Positions 2,229 through 60,786 of a stretch of DNA of 64,000 nucleotides are shown one piece after another. This DNA is from Candidatus Oscillibacter pullicola (GTDB lineage: Bacteria > Bacillota > Clostridia > Oscillospirales > Oscillospiraceae). The stretch is from positions 36,329-100,328 of the forward strand of contig DWXY01000124.1 in NCBI GenBank assembly GCA_019118935.1, in the 5' to 3' direction. Below the pieces are notes generated by a model. The model saw only the letters and a list, made by a program, of their open reading frames with translations. It had not been told where the DNA came from and did not search any database. A program made the position numbers and the translations under genes. The number at the start of each line of letters is the position of its first letter. The stretch's first letter is position 1.

Positions 2229-2796
2229 GTGAGTAAGACAGACAGTCGCGCGGCCAGGCCGAAAGGCCGTCCGTGAGGAAAGTCCGGGCTCCACAGGGCA
2301 AGGATAACGGGTAACGCCCGCCGAAGGCGACTTCAGGAAAAGTGCAACAGAGATATACCGCCTCGTCGTCGCAAGCTCCATATCCTTCGCTGTCATCAGC
2401 GCAACCCACGATGACGGCGCCGTTCCACGTTGGTTCGGCAGGATACAGAGCGTGCAGCGCAACCGCGTCCCCCACTCCGGAAAGAACCCAGCGAAGCGGT
2501 TCTTTTCGGAAGAGGAGGAGCAGCGGAATGAGTGAGCTTTCGCCGCCAGGCGGAAGCGAAGGATATGGAGCTTGCGACGACGAGGTAAGGGTGGAAAGGT
2601 GCGGTAAGAGCGCACCCATCGGCTGGAGACTGTCCGATGCTGTAAACTCTATCCGGAGCAACACCGGTATGGGAGCAGGGGGTCCGACCCCCAAGGCTGG
2701 CCCGGCCGCTCCCGGGGTGGCTGGAGCGTATCGGCAACGATGCGTCGAGATAGATGACTGTCAAATACAGAACCCGGCTTACAGTCTTGCTCGTAC
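2229..2796 (+). ncRNA. rnpB: RNase P RNA, class A, with greatly enlarged P12
   Basis: gaggaaagtccgggctccacagggc, ggtaagggtggaaaggtgcggtaagagcgcacc, cagaacccggcttacag; P1 pairing gagtaagac (2231-2239) with gtcttgctc (2784-2792). Confidence 0.95.
2361..2585 (+). repeat. Palindromic insertion forming extended P12 of RNase P RNA (31-bp perfect inverted arms 2361-2391 / 2555-2585)
   Basis: cctcgtcgtcgcaagctccatatccttcgct vs agcgaaggatatggagcttgcgacgacgagg; 163-nt interior containing further hairpins (e.g. aaagaacc...ggttcttt). Confidence 0.9.
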
Positions 2797-2797
2797 A

Positions 2798-17253: not shown

Positions 17254-17290
17254 AAAAAAGTCCCGGCCAGGGCATGTGCCTGGACGGGAC
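17254..17290 (-). terminator. Intrinsic terminator downstream of xerD
   Basis: Minus strand: gtcccgtccaggcacatgccctggccgggacttttttgct. Confidence 0.7.
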
Positions 17291-17412
17291 ACTTCTGCCC
17301 CTGGCCGCGGTCGGCCGGGGCCGTCTTTGCCGTGCAAAGGCGAGGGGGATCGGCAGAGGCGGGCTCTGCCCGCCGGAGTGTCGGCGGGAGGCGCCGGTGC
17401 CCCCCCTTGGAG

Positions 17413-26724: not shown

Positions 26725-26743
26725 TTGGGAATGAATTCAAGTT

Positions 26744-27402
26744 GGCTAAGCCGGCGGCGGCGGAAAAGGTAAATCTTACGGCTTAGGTACGGGTTGGATT
26801 TCCCCGCGGCACACCTCTCGTTGCCGATGGAGGCGGTTCCCCCTTCGGTGCCGCGGCACAGTGTCGCCAGCCATGCCACCCGATCGCCACTTAGTCCGCA
26901 CTGCAATCCCTTTTCAGCCCGGTCAGGACAGCCTAGGTGATTTCCACCCCAGTCGATCCGTCCCTTTAGCCTCTTTTGCAAACCGGGTTTCAGGGGGCGA
27001 TCAAACGGGCCCTCCGGCCAGAGGGCCCCGCCTGTTGTTCCCCCATCCACCCGCCTCACGCAAGGCAGGCTACGTCTGCACACAGCGTTACGGCCCCCCA
27101 GGGCCGATGCACCGCGCTGCAGGTTCATCAGCTGCTTCGTACGCGGCCCGGAATACCACACTGGGAGTACGTCCGCGCACAAGAACAGGTCTCCACGGAA
27201 ACAGGGTCATCATCACCATGCCATTGGAAAGCGCCCTGAGTCCGCAAGCGCAGGCAAAGCCAGGCTTCCCCCCAGCACCCACCCGAAACTGGGCGTATCA
27301 AGCAGGCACCAGAGGTTTCATCGGTGTGCCCTTCAGAGGATTTTTAGCCCCTCCTTCGGAGACGGATGATCTGACTAGAATACTGCGCCGCCGCTTAGCG
27401 CC
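26744..27402 (-). ncRNA. ole: OLE (ornate, large, extremophilic) RNA
   Basis: ~660 nt without credible ORF between ispA and the oapA-like gene/dxs (canonical OLE locus); own promoter; 5' gctaagcggcggcg pairs with 3' ccggcttagc. Confidence 0.82.
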
Positions 27403-27406
27403 ATAC

Positions 27407-27435
27407 AGTATATCACAAATCTAATAAATATACAA
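27407..27435 (-). promoter_or_regulatory. Sigma-A-like promoter of OLE RNA (TTGTAT-N17-TATACT)
   Basis: Minus strand ttgtat-atttattagatttgtga-tatact ending ~5 nt before the proposed RNA start. Confidence 0.75.
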
Positions 27436-56848: not shown

Positions 56849-58231
56849 TCACTGCTCCTTCTTGGGCCAGTACTTTTCGATATACTCCGGCTTGATCCGC
56901 TTCAGCTCGCTCTTGGGCAGGATGCTCAGCAGCTCCCAGCCCAGGTCCAGCGTCTCCTGGATGGAACGGTTCTCCTCGTAGCCCTGGTTCACATACCGCT
57001 TCTCAAACTCGTCGGCGAATTTGGCGTACAGCAGGTCCGTGGGCGTCAGGGCCGCCTCGCCCAGAATGGACATCAATTCCTTGTTGTCCTTGCCGGTGGA
57101 GTAGGCCGCGAACAGCTGGTTCATGGTGCCGGAGTGGTCCTCCCGGGTCTTGCCCTCGCCGATGCCCTTGTCCTTCAGACGGCTCAGGGACGGCAGCACG
57201 TCCACCGGCGGGTGGATGCCCTTGCGGTACAGCTCCCGGCTGAGGATGATCTGCCCCTCGGTGATATAGCCCGTCAGGTCGGGGATCGGGTGGGTCTTGT
57301 CATCCTCCGGCATGGTCAGAATGGGGATCAGGGTGATGGAGCCCTTCTTCCCCAGCTGGCGGCCGGCCCGCTCGTAGATCGTGGCCAGGTTCGTGTACAG
57401 ATACCCGGGGAAGCCGCGGCGGCCGGGGACCTCCTTCTTGGCGGCGGAGACCTCCCGCAATGCCTCGGCGTAGTTGGTGATGTCGGTCATGATGACCAGC
57501 ACGTGCATATCCTTCTCAAAGGCCAGATACTCCGCGGCGGTCAGGGCCATCCGGGGCGTGGCGATGCGCTCCACCGCCGGGTCGTTGGCGAGATTGGAGA
57601 ACATGACCGTCCGGTCGATGGCGCCGGTGCGCTTGAACTCGCTGACGAAGAACTCCGACTCCTCGAAGGTGATGCCGATGGCGGCGAACACCACGGCAAA
57701 CTTGGAGGTGTCGTCCCCGATCACCTTGGCCTGCCGGGCGATCTGGGCCGCCAGATTGGCGTGGGGCAGGCCGGAGCCGGAGAAGATGGGCAGCTTCTGC
57801 CCGCGGACCAGGGTGTTCAGCCCGTCGATGGTGCTGACGCCGGTCTGGATGAACTCGTTGGGGTAGTCCCGGGCCGCCGGGTTCATGGGCAGGCCGTTGA
57901 TGTCCCGGTACTCCTCCGCCAGGATCTCCGGCCCGCCGTCGATGGGCCGGCCCATGCCGTTGAACACCCGGCCCAGCATATCGGCGGACACGCCCAGCTG
58001 CAGCGGGTGGCCCAGGAAGCGGACCTTGGCGTCCGCCAGGTTGATGCCGGCGGCGGACTCGAACAGCTGCACCACGGCGGTGTCGCCGTTGACCTCCAGC
58101 ACCTGGCCCCGGCGGACGGAGCCGTCGTGGAGCTCCACCTCCACCAGCTCGTCATAGGTGACGCCGTCCACCATGCGGACGATCATCAGAGGACTGGCGA
58201 TCTCCTCTACCGTTCTGTATTCCCGGATCAT
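56849..58231 (-). CDS. atpB: V-type ATP synthase subunit B
   Basis: [43 protein letters not shown]...[20 protein letters not shown]. Confidence 0.96.
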
Positions 58232-60000
58232 GCGTCCTCCCCTCCTTCCTCCGCAATGGCGGTGATCTCCTGCTCCATCTCGGCGGAGATCTGCTGGTAG
58301 ACCTGCTGGTACTCCTCAGCCGGCACGCTCTTGGCCCGGCCGATCTTCTCACGGGACGGAACGGCGAAGAGCTTCGCCACCGGCGCGCCCTTGGCGATGG
58401 CCTCCCGGCACAGCCGGTCGTACCGCAGGACCATGGCCAGCAGCTTTTCCTGCCGGTCGTAGCTGGAGAAGCTGTCCACATCCGCAAAGGCGTTCTGCTG
58501 CAGGAAGTCCTCCCGCACCATCCGCGCCACCTCCAGCGTCAGCTGGTCCGCCGGGGACAGGGCGTCCTTGCCCACCAGCTGGACGATCTCGTTCAGGCTG
58601 GCCTCGCTCTGGAGGATGCTCATGGCGCTGGCCCGGTCCTCCAGGAACTCCGGTCCCAGGTTCTCGTCGAACCAGGGCTTCAGGGAGTCCAGATACAGGG
58701 AGTAGGAGTTCAGCCAGTTGATGGCTGGGAAGTGGCGCTTGTAGGCCAGGGACGAATCCAGGGCCCAGAAGACCTTGACGATCCGCATGGTGGCCTGTGC
58801 CACGGGCTCGGACAGGTCGCCGCCCGGCGGCGACACGGCGCCCACGGCGGTGAGGCTGCCCCGGCGGTCGTCGGAGCCGATGCAGGCCACGCTGCCGGCC
58901 CGCTCGTAGAACTGGGCCAGGCGGGAGGCAAGGTACGCGGGGTAGCCCTCCTCGCCGGGCATCTCCTCCAGCCGGCCGGACATCTCGCGCAGGGCCTCCG
59001 CCCAGCGGGAGGTGGAGTCGGCGATGACCGCCACGTCGTAGCCCATGTCCCGGAAGTACTCCGCGATGGTGATGCCGGTGTAGACCGACGCCTCACGGGC
59101 GGCCACGGGCATATCGGAGGTGTTGGCGATCAGCACCGTCCGCTTCATCAACGACTCCCCGGTGCGGGGGTCCTTCAGCTCCGGGAACTCCCGGAGCACG
59201 TCGGTCATCTCGTTGCCCCGCTCGCCGCAGCCGATGTAGACCACGATGTCCACATCCGCCCACTTGGCCAGCTGGTGCTGCACCACAGTCTTGCCGGAGC
59301 CGAAGGGCCCGGGCACGGCGGCGGTGCCGCCCTTGGCGATGGGAAACAGGGTGTCAATGACCCGCTGGCCGGAGCACAACGGCCGCTTGGGGGGATATTT
59401 GTGCTTGTAGGGCCGCCCGATCCGGACCGGCCACTTCTGCACCATGGTCAGGGGCACGTCCTCCCCCTTGTCGGTGCGCAGGGTGGCCACGGTCTCCTCC
59501 ACGGTGAAGGAGCCGCTCCTGATGTCCGTGATGGTGCCGCTCATGTTGGGAGGCACCATGATCTTGTGGAGCACCACCGGCGTCTCCGGCACGGTGCCGA
59601 TCACGTCGCCGCCCTCCACCTTCGTGCCGGGGGTAACCGCGGCGGTGAAGTCCCATTTCTTCTCCCGGTCCAGGGCGGGGACCTCCACGCCCCGGGTGAT
59701 GTTGGCGCCCACCTTCTCCACGATCTTCTCCAGCGGCCGCTGGATGCCGTCGTAGATGCCCTCGATCATGCCGGGGCCCAGCTCCACGCTCATGGGTGCG
59801 CCGGTGGTGACCACCTCCGCCCCCGGCCCCAGGCCGGAGGTCTCCTCGTACACCTGAATGGAGGCGGAGTCCCCCTTCATCGTCAAAATCTCGCCGATCA
59901 GCCGCTGGGGGCCGACGCGGACCACGTCGGACATGTTGGCGTCCGCCAGGCCCGTGGCCACCACCAGCGGTCCGGATACCTTCACAATCTTACCGCTCAA
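58228..60000 (-). CDS. atpA: V-type ATP synthase subunit A
   Basis: [28 protein letters not shown]...[38 protein letters not shown] (apparent [13 protein letters not shown]-loop). Confidence 0.96.
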
Positions 60001-60465
60001 ACTCGCTCAACCTTCTTTCACACCAGTTTCGCCAGCAGGAATCGGCCCCTTCGGGAAAAGGGCCAGGAAAAACCATGGTTTTCCGGTTCTTCCGCCGTAA
60101 GGCGGGAGAAGAATTTCCAATCATTTTCGGCAGGACATGTGCCTGCCGAAAATACCCCGACTCAGCCTCGGCCCAAAGGAGCGGGCCTCGGCAGACCCGG
60201 CGGCAGGATGCCGGGCCAGCCGCCTTGGGCGGCGTTCACCAGTCCGCGCCTAAGCCGCTGGAAGCGGCGCGGAAGTACCCTTGGGGTGCAGACTGGTGAG
60301 GGGGTTCAGCGGAAGCGGGCACCGCCCGCCGGAGCGTCTAAGGGGAAACAGCCGAAGCGCCGCCAGCGGCGGAAAAAACGAGGCTGTTTCGAGGCAGCGG
60401 CGCGATTGGCGGCCCAAGCAGGGCCGGGAATCGCAATGCCGCAGCGGTGTCAGCCCGCTCCCTCT
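60001..60465. repeat. Hairpin-rich non-coding segment inside V-ATPase operon (repeat family 2 / candidate structured RNA)
   Basis: Hairpins 60124-60152, 60236-60299, 60345-60390; 41-bp block 60298-60338 similar to 17342-17382. Confidence 0.7.
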
Positions 60466-60786
60466 TTACAGAATGTCCGCGCCCACCGCTCTCTGAATGG
60501 ACTGCTGGATGTTGTTCATGCCGATGCCGAGGGAGCCCTCCCGGCCGGGGATCAGGATGATGGCGGGCCGCAGCTCGTCCTTATACCGGTCCAGCACGTC
60601 CGGCAGGTCCTTTGCCAGCTGCTCCGTCAGATAGATGATGCCGCAGTCGCCGCTCTTCGCCAGCTCCCGGATGGTCTCCCGGGCCTCCTCGGGGGCGGTG
60701 ACGGGATACGTCTCCAGTCCCAGGGCCCGGAAGCCCATGACGGACTCCCAGCTGCCGATCACGGCGATCCGATACGTTGTGGCCAT
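60466..60786 (-). CDS. atpF: V-type ATP synthase subunit F
   Basis: MATTYRIAVIGSWESVMGFRALGLETYPV...CGIIYLTEQLAKDLPDVLDRYKDELRPAIILIPG. Confidence 0.9.
   Translation of the reverse strand: MATTYRIAVIGSWESVMGFRALGLETYPVTAPEEARETIRELAKSGDCGIIYLTEQLAKDLPDVLDRYKDELRPAIILIPGREGSLGIGMNNIQQSIQRAVGADIL

What the first reader, a model, noticed from the sequence alone, without database searches (positions are those of the whole stretch)
60001..60465. 465-bp structured gap inside the V/A-ATPase operon between subunits F and A
Other gene junctions in the I-K-E-C-F-A-B-D operon are short, except the smaller B-D gap. This gap has no convincing ORF but several strong hairpins: ttttcggcagg-acatgtg-cctgccgaaaa (60124-60152), a nested stem tcaccagtc...gactggtga enclosing ccgcgcc/ggcgcgg (60236-60299), and gaaacagcc...ggctgtttc (60345-60390). 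It may regulate relative expression of stalk and catalytic subunits, process the mRNA, or be an inserted repeat.
Basis: seen in the sequence. Interest (0 to 1): 0.6.

Follow-up and report, generated by a model that had tools for sequence, protein, structure and literature searches.

The report
Nested mobile hairpin repeats inside operon
The odd gap between two proton-pump genes is a pile of small, hairpin-rich repeats that recur across this gut bacterium's genome, so it is a mobile-repeat insertion and not a switch specific to the pump; the repeat family sits in one orientation right behind stop codons, and its relatives in sister genera duplicate whole terminator hairpins where they sit.

Summary
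The 465-bp gap (60001-60465) between the V/A-ATPase F and A genes is real, its hairpins are real (fold z = -6.1), and it contains no gene. It is not a conserved ATPase-operon element. It is a composite of dispersed, non-autonomous repeats found across the Oscillibacter genus. (1) B is a modular multi-hairpin element that starts at the stop codon of F; there are about 21 strong copies in this genome, and 48 of 61 genomes of the genus have it. (2) A is a ~107-bp two-hairpin element (7 copies here) inserted into B's first hairpin. (3) Two further hairpin insertions, of 42 and 53 bp, are also present. A close relative has B at the same place without A or the two extra inserts, which gives the empty site. 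Twenty of 26 genus members have neither element at this junction. Arms of A and B covary strongly, with no G-U excess, which suggests selection on DNA palindromes. B is strictly oriented: 71 of 73 copies lie downstream of, and co-directional with, a gene. Diverged relatives in sister genera are flanked by exact copies of the whole local terminator hairpin (16 of 26 copies against 0 of 210 controls). The closest known kind is Yersinia YPAL/RU-2, with BOX-like modularity. Effects on ATPase expression are possible but untested.

The parts
60466..60786 (-). V/A-ATPase subunit F gene (upstream neighbour; its stop codon abuts element B)
   Evidence: ORF 106 aa; orthologues next to AtpA in 28 other genomes
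58228..60000 (-). V/A-ATPase subunit A gene (downstream neighbour)
   Evidence: ORF 590 aa; matches in 56 of 60 relatives
60054..60465 (-). element B as a whole: modular multi-hairpin repeat, here expanded by three insertions (262-bp junction in G018, 465 here)
60452..60465 (-). B hairpin 1, 5' arm (AGAGGGAGCGGGCT), directly after the F stop codon; its 3' remainder CCCTTAG is at 60338-60344
60344..60451 (-). element A (~107 bp, two covarying hairpins, CACCG..GCGGCATTGCGAT...GAAACAGCC...GGCTGTTTCC) inserted in the loop of B hairpin 1
   Evidence: 7 copies in own genome; empty site in G018; covariation in 28 of 35 pairs
60307..60336 (-). optional B module 2 (CGCTCCGGCGGGCGGTGCCCGC..)
   Evidence: same module in other B copies
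60237..60298 (-). B hairpin 3 (CACCAGTCTGC...GGACTGGTG), split by a 42-bp hairpin insertion at 60246-60287
   Evidence: G018 has CACCAGTCTGCGGACTGGTG uninterrupted
60216..60236 (-). B hairpin 4
60163..60215 (-). 53-bp two-hairpin insertion, flanked by a 5-bp direct repeat GGCTG, absent in G018
60119..60162 (-). B hairpin 5 (GTATTTTCGGCAGGCACATGTCCTGCCGAAAATGATT), the most conserved part of the family
60087..60113 (-). B hairpin 6
60054..60086 (-). B hairpin 7 and 3' end
60011..60019 (-). ribosome-binding site of subunit A (GAAAGAAGG); the last ~40 bp of the gap are shared with relatives that lack B

Best explanation
The gap is a nested pile of small non-autonomous mobile repeats. Element B, a modular chain of hairpins, sits directly behind the stop codon of subunit F. 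Element A later inserted into B's first hairpin, and two further hairpin insertions entered B's third hairpin and the stretch behind its fourth. Shown: repeat membership, copy numbers, the empty site of A and the two extra inserts in a close relative, patchy occupancy, the fixed orientation behind stop codons, and covariation of the arms. Shown for diverged relatives in sister genera: exact duplication of the whole local terminator hairpin on both sides of the element. Inferred: an unidentified enzyme inserts these elements at hairpins (extruded or single-stranded DNA at gene ends), so that hairpins attract further insertions, and orientation is set by the target or by selection against antisense or upstream insertions. 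Inferred and untested: being co-transcribed within the ATPase mRNA, the pile behaves like other intercistronic hairpin repeats, for example by slowing 3'-5' decay of the upstream mRNA or mildly lowering expression of A-B-D.
For: Pieces of the gap match many other places in the genome. Covariance models find 21 B copies at E <= 1e-7 (more at weaker scores) and 7 A copies in the 2.6-Mb genome, and copies in 48 of 61 (B) and 30 of 61 (A) genomes of the genus. G018 (96% identical AtpA) has B at the same junction without A, the 42-bp and the 53-bp inserts. Twenty of 26 genus members have neither element at the junction. Orthologous post-stop sites show presence/absence and swaps with other repeats. 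Of 73 B copies with a callable upstream gene, 71 are co-directional with it, 46 of 56 callable downstream genes are co-directional too, and hairpin 3 starts 28-46 nt after the stop in 39 of the 71. Covariation: A has 28 of 35 pairs with double changes and 95.4% of cells paired against 85.5% shuffled; B has 98.1% against 89.9%. Flanking duplications of 14-32 bp occur in 16 of 26 sister-genus copies against 0 of 210 mismatched controls, and in 4 of 11 copies in Vescimonas fastidiosa against 0 of 110.
Against: No transposase was tied to the elements: Y1/RAYT-type genes occur in 17 of 61 genus members and do not follow the copy numbers, and the four Y1 loci examined carry no B element. Oscillibacter-type B copies themselves show no flanking duplication, so the insertion mechanism is carried over from diverged relatives. 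In one sister genus (g101) the duplications are not above controls. No RNA-seq was available, so co-transcription and any effect on expression are inference.
Confidence: 0.85

Rival explanations
1. A cis-acting RNA element of the ATPase operon (processing site, attenuator or riboswitch-like leader) that sets the ratio of stalk to catalytic subunits.
For: Strong predicted structure; it lies between co-directional genes whose products are needed in different amounts; B also sits at groES-groEL, pheS-pheT and upstream of dnaK.
Against: Absent at this junction in 20 of 26 genus members, including one with 93% identical AtpA; the same sequence lies behind many unrelated genes; no Rfam match, promoter-like or terminator-like site.
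Confidence: 0.07
2. B elements are domesticated post-stop mRNA-stability elements (BIME-like), kept by selection and spread by recombination, not transposition.
For: Strict orientation (71 of 73) and start right after stop codons, mostly inside operons; arms kept paired by compensatory change.
Against: Presence/absence and swaps at orthologous sites between close relatives; G-U pairs are no more frequent than A-C mismatches (4 vs 6 in B, 17 vs 20 in A), which does not favour selection on one RNA strand; sister-genus relatives carry duplicated target hairpins.
Confidence: 0.3
3. REP/BIME system moved by a RAYT (Y1) transposase.
For: Short hairpin units in composite arrays outside genes resemble REP/BIME; the own genome has two PF01797 matches.
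Against: Genomes rich in B and A (G018, G024, G267, G278) have no PF01797 match while G141 has five and no B; no significant R1 match beside the four Y1 genes examined.
Confidence: 0.05
4. The terminator-hairpin duplications in sister genera are not target duplications but a functional or gene-converted pair of terminators that bracket the element.
For: Palindromic copies could be homogenised by gene conversion; two hairpins in a row could both be useful; no empty site was compared for those loci.
Against: The duplicated hairpin differs from locus to locus and, in the clearest copies, the upstream copy keeps the A-rich and the downstream copy the T-rich flank, as expected when one terminator is split by an insertion.
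Confidence: 0.2

Closest known systems
YPAL / RU-2 (Yersinia palindromic sequences), as reviewed in PMC2229807
   Same: Non-autonomous, ~170-bp class, not A+T-rich, inverted repeats internal and not terminal, targets span or adjoin dyad symmetry, target duplications of variable length (3-26 bp), reported to be expressed together with upstream genes.
   Different: No sequence kinship was tested; here the duplicated target in the relatives is the entire terminator stem-loop (up to 32 bp), the element is modular with nested second elements, and orientation behind the stop codon is nearly absolute in Oscillibacter.
BOX elements of Streptococcus pneumoniae (PMC3049150)
   Same: Dispersed composite repeats with extensive secondary structure and a variable number of modules.
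   Different: BOX copies are over-represented between convergent genes; B lies mostly between co-directional genes with fixed orientation. Variation in B comes from other hairpin elements inserted within it, not from tandem boxB units.
ERIC/IRU and RUP
   Same: Small intergenic non-autonomous repeats; ERIC is co-transcribed and alters the stability of the upstream mRNA in an orientation-dependent way (PMC2229807).
   Different: Those have terminal inverted repeats and TA at their ends or targets (PMC2229807 and general knowledge); B and A have no TA ends and their palindromes are internal.
REP/BIME with RAYT transposases (PMC2817692, PMC3733652)
   Same: Hairpin units in mosaic arrays at 3' ends of genes and in operons.
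   Different: B is a fixed series of different hairpins, not alternating copies of one 20-40-bp REP; no RAYT association.

Membership tests
YPAL/RU-2-type miniature insertion sequences | variable-length target duplication at dyad symmetry | tested here: inconclusive
   Met in sister-genus relatives: >=14-bp duplications in 4/6, 4/9 and 8/11 copies of three genera, controls 0/210, and 4/11 in Vescimonas. Not seen around Oscillibacter-type B copies and not above controls in genus g101.
YPAL/RU-2-type miniature insertion sequences | filled versus empty sites in close relatives | tested here: met
   A and two smaller inserts absent at the same junction in G018; B present/absent at orthologous sites.
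YPAL/RU-2-type miniature insertion sequences | sequence similarity to YPAL | not tested
   YPAL sequences were not fetched; no known family appears among the Rfam matches.
REP/BIME-RAYT system | associated Y1 (PF01797) transposase gene bounded by the repeat | tested here: not met
   PF01797 in 17/61 genus members without relation to copy number; no significant R1 hit at the loci examined.
BOX elements | boxA-boxB(n)-boxC architecture and sequence | not tested
   Only the modular character was compared, from PMC3049150.
Known structured RNA (Rfam 15) | match at or above a family's gathering score | tested here: not met
   None in the gap nor in 20 related loci.
Intrinsic transcription terminator | stem-loop followed by a T run | tested here: not met
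   0 terminator-like sites at 59900-60560 on either strand.

The most novel reading that the evidence does not exclude
Oscillospiraceae carry a family of mobile elements whose insertion is directed by DNA hairpin structure: the enzyme opens terminators or other palindromes at the base of the extruded hairpin, so that fill-in duplicates the whole stem-loop whatever its length, and hairpins carried by the elements become targets for further elements. That would explain the nested pile in the ATPase operon and the fixed position at gene ends.
Probability: 0.25. Interest if true: 0.7.

Novelty: new variant of a known kind. Interest (0 to 1): 0.45.

Why it matters
It shows that gut Oscillospiraceae, which are abundant but poorly studied, have a large uncharacterised system of structured intergenic repeats that rewrites the 3' ends of genes, including ATP synthase, chaperone and tRNA-synthetase operons. 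The duplication of whole terminator hairpins makes a testable prediction about an insertion mechanism that reads DNA structure. In practice it warns against reading long structured gaps in these genomes as operon-specific regulators.

Tried and rejected
Rfam scans at gathering and relaxed thresholds, in the gap and in related loci, found nothing credible. Promoter/terminator scan: nothing. ORFs of 71-80 aa in the gap were set aside as unconserved, because the gap itself is not conserved. RAYT/Y1 partner: no association. Flanking duplications around Oscillibacter B copies: none. A first run of the duplication test used a wrong flank window that missed the duplicated hairpins and was replaced. 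Paper searches for these repeats in Oscillospiraceae or for terminator-hairpin duplication found nothing relevant. The RNA-versus-DNA test (G-U against A-C) had no positive-control RNA, so it is only suggestive.

Full report
Observation. The V/A-ATPase operon lies on the minus strand (F 60466-60786, A 58228-60000) and the F-A junction is 465 bp; the other junctions are at most 22 bp or overlap, except B-D with 162 bp. The transcribed strand folds far better than shuffled sequence (z = -6.1). No Rfam family, promoter-like or terminator-like site was found.

What the gap consists of. Searching the window's own genome with the gap gave 68 matches. Local alignment resolves two repeat families. Element A is ~107 bp: CACCG[T/C]TGCGGCATTGCGATT ... 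GAAACAGCC ... GGCTGTTTCC. Element B is a series of hairpins that begins at a stop codon: AAAGGGGGAGC-AGG-CTCCCCCTTTA (hp1), an optional module 2, CACCAGT...ACTGGTG (hp3), TGTGCGCCCAAGGCGCAC (hp4), GTATTTTCGGCAGGTACACGCCCTGCCGAAAATGATT (hp5), then hp6 and hp7. Covariance models built from 38 B cores and 7 A copies find 21 B copies at E <= 1e-7 plus weaker ones, and 7 A copies, in this 2.6-Mb genome. A pattern scan of 84,980 genomes returned 35 stretches whose titles name Oscillibacter, Dysosmobacter or unclassified Oscillospiraceae/Clostridia; that the window's genus is of this group is an inference from this. In the genus, B occurs in 48 of 61 genomes (up to 28 copies) and A in 30 of 61 (up to 28).

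Empty site. In G018, whose AtpA is 96% identical, the junction is 262 bp: the same B element, in uninterrupted form. Our window differs by element A inside hp1, a 42-bp insert that splits hp3, and a 53-bp insert behind hp4 flanked by a 5-bp direct repeat GGCTG. These three account for the 203-bp difference within a base or so. Of 26 genus members read, 5 have B at this junction, one (G024) has a 1306-bp pile of other repeats with an A copy, and 20 have neither (18-175 bp). The gap is therefore not a conserved part of the operon.

Position of B. Using a codon-usage gene caller trained on the window, 71 of 73 B copies with a callable upstream gene follow a gene on the same strand, and hp3 starts 28-46 nt after the stop codon in 39 of the 71. 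The downstream gene is co-directional in 46 of 56 callable cases and convergent in 10. Some of these loci are orthologous, so the counts are not fully independent, but no correction would bring 71/73 near one half. Neighbours read directly from translations include groES-groEL, pheS-pheT and RdgB-rph in sister genera (L172, L168, L167) and a copy upstream of dnaK in this genome (L027). At orthologous post-stop sites G018 and G004 may hold B, B with A, B with other modules in hp3 or in the loop of hp5, inverted arrays of AATTAGG-type heptamers, or nothing. B's hairpins are themselves frequent targets: A lies in hp1 (window, L009, L011, L173) or hp7 (L015, L188, L192), and other modules in hp3 or the hp5 loop.

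Conservation of structure. In A, 28 of 35 pairs show changes on both sides and 95.4% of cells pair against 85.5% in shuffles (0 of 500); in B the values are 8 of 26 pairs and 98.1% against 89.9%. The A alignment was fitted to its model, the B alignment (A1) was not. Leaving out one ambiguous pair per alignment, G-U cells do not exceed A-C cells (B: 4 vs 6; A: 17 vs 20). RNA-level selection should favour G-U over A-C; the symmetry suggests selection on the double-stranded palindrome. Without a positive control this is suggestive only.

Relatives in sister genera. The B model finds weaker relatives in many genera of the family. They share hp5 and add hp6-AAACTCTGCGAGGCTTTT; intermediate forms (L168) link both types. 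In three genera these elements sit at intrinsic terminators with an exact copy of the terminator stem-loop on each side, different at every locus, for example GATCAGGCTCCGCGTTTTGCGGAGCCTGATCT in L170 and AAAGCAGACGCCGGGGGCGTCTGCTTT in L207. In the clearest copies the upstream copy keeps the A-rich flank and the downstream copy the T-rich flank. Duplications of >=14 bp: 4/6, 4/9 and 8/11 copies against 0 of 210 mismatched pairs; a fourth genus shows 1/15 against 5/210 in controls. In the named species Vescimonas fastidiosa 4 of 11 copies in 200 kb show it, controls 0 of 110. Oscillibacter-type B copies show none.

Mechanism. Most likely these are non-autonomous elements inserted at hairpin-forming DNA at gene ends by an enzyme not yet identified. 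Mobility is shown by the empty site and by presence/absence; the enzyme and the chemistry are inferred. A RAYT/Y1 transposase is not supported. Some human-gut phage records carry A-like sequence and a Vescimonas megaplasmid carries many copies, so horizontal carriage is possible. A functional effect, such as protection or attenuation of the ATPase mRNA, is plausible from ERIC and REP precedents but was not tested.

Comparison. The review PMC2229807 describes YPAL/RU-2 of Yersinia: internal inverted repeats, target duplications of 3-26 bp, targets at dyad symmetry, expression together with upstream genes. That is the closest kind. BOX elements (PMC3049150) share modularity but prefer convergent intergenic regions. 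The new points here are the near-absolute orientation behind stop codons, nesting of unrelated hairpin elements, and duplication of an entire terminator stem-loop in relatives. No paper describing these repeats was found in the open-access library, which does not hold most subscription journals.

Noticed in passing
window 26738-27407 (-): Full-length OLE RNA (RF01071, 384 bits), a large structured RNA.
   Followed up: no
window 2230-2797 (+): RNase P RNA class A match (RF00010) spanning 568 bases against a 367-position model, so it seems to carry long insertions.
   Followed up: no
window 17257-17382 (-): Weak B-like element (30 bits) right behind the stop codon of a gene that reads like a tyrosine recombinase (L031).
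   Followed up: partly
L163, L166, L170, L193, L195, L202-L204, L206-L210 and L276/L279 (Vescimonas fastidiosa): Sister-genus relatives of element B flanked by exact duplicates of the whole terminator stem-loop or much of it.
   Followed up: yes
L219, L237, L245, L246, L249 (G018); L226, L230 (G004): At orthologous post-stop sites B is replaced by inverted arrays of heptamer-like units such as AATTAGG/CCTAATT or GAGTGAAG/CACTCT; another intergenic repeat system using the same position.
   Followed up: no
L010 2444-2700 (own genome C9): Element A lies between two copies of the 3' end of a gene coding ...GGGASLEFxEGKELPGVACLLD (phosphoglycerate-kinase-like C-terminus), as if the gene end had been duplicated around it.
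   Followed up: no
G024, contig ends (C22, C40, C77, C103, C121): Many A copies lie at contig ends in a larger repeated context (CATACCGCTTCGTTGCCCCCTTG|A), suggesting longer high-copy repeats that break assembly.
   Followed up: partly
MT837154.1, MT838885.1 and other human-faecal phage records: Unannotated phage contigs carry element-A-like sequence (up to 82% identity over ~106 bp).
   Followed up: no
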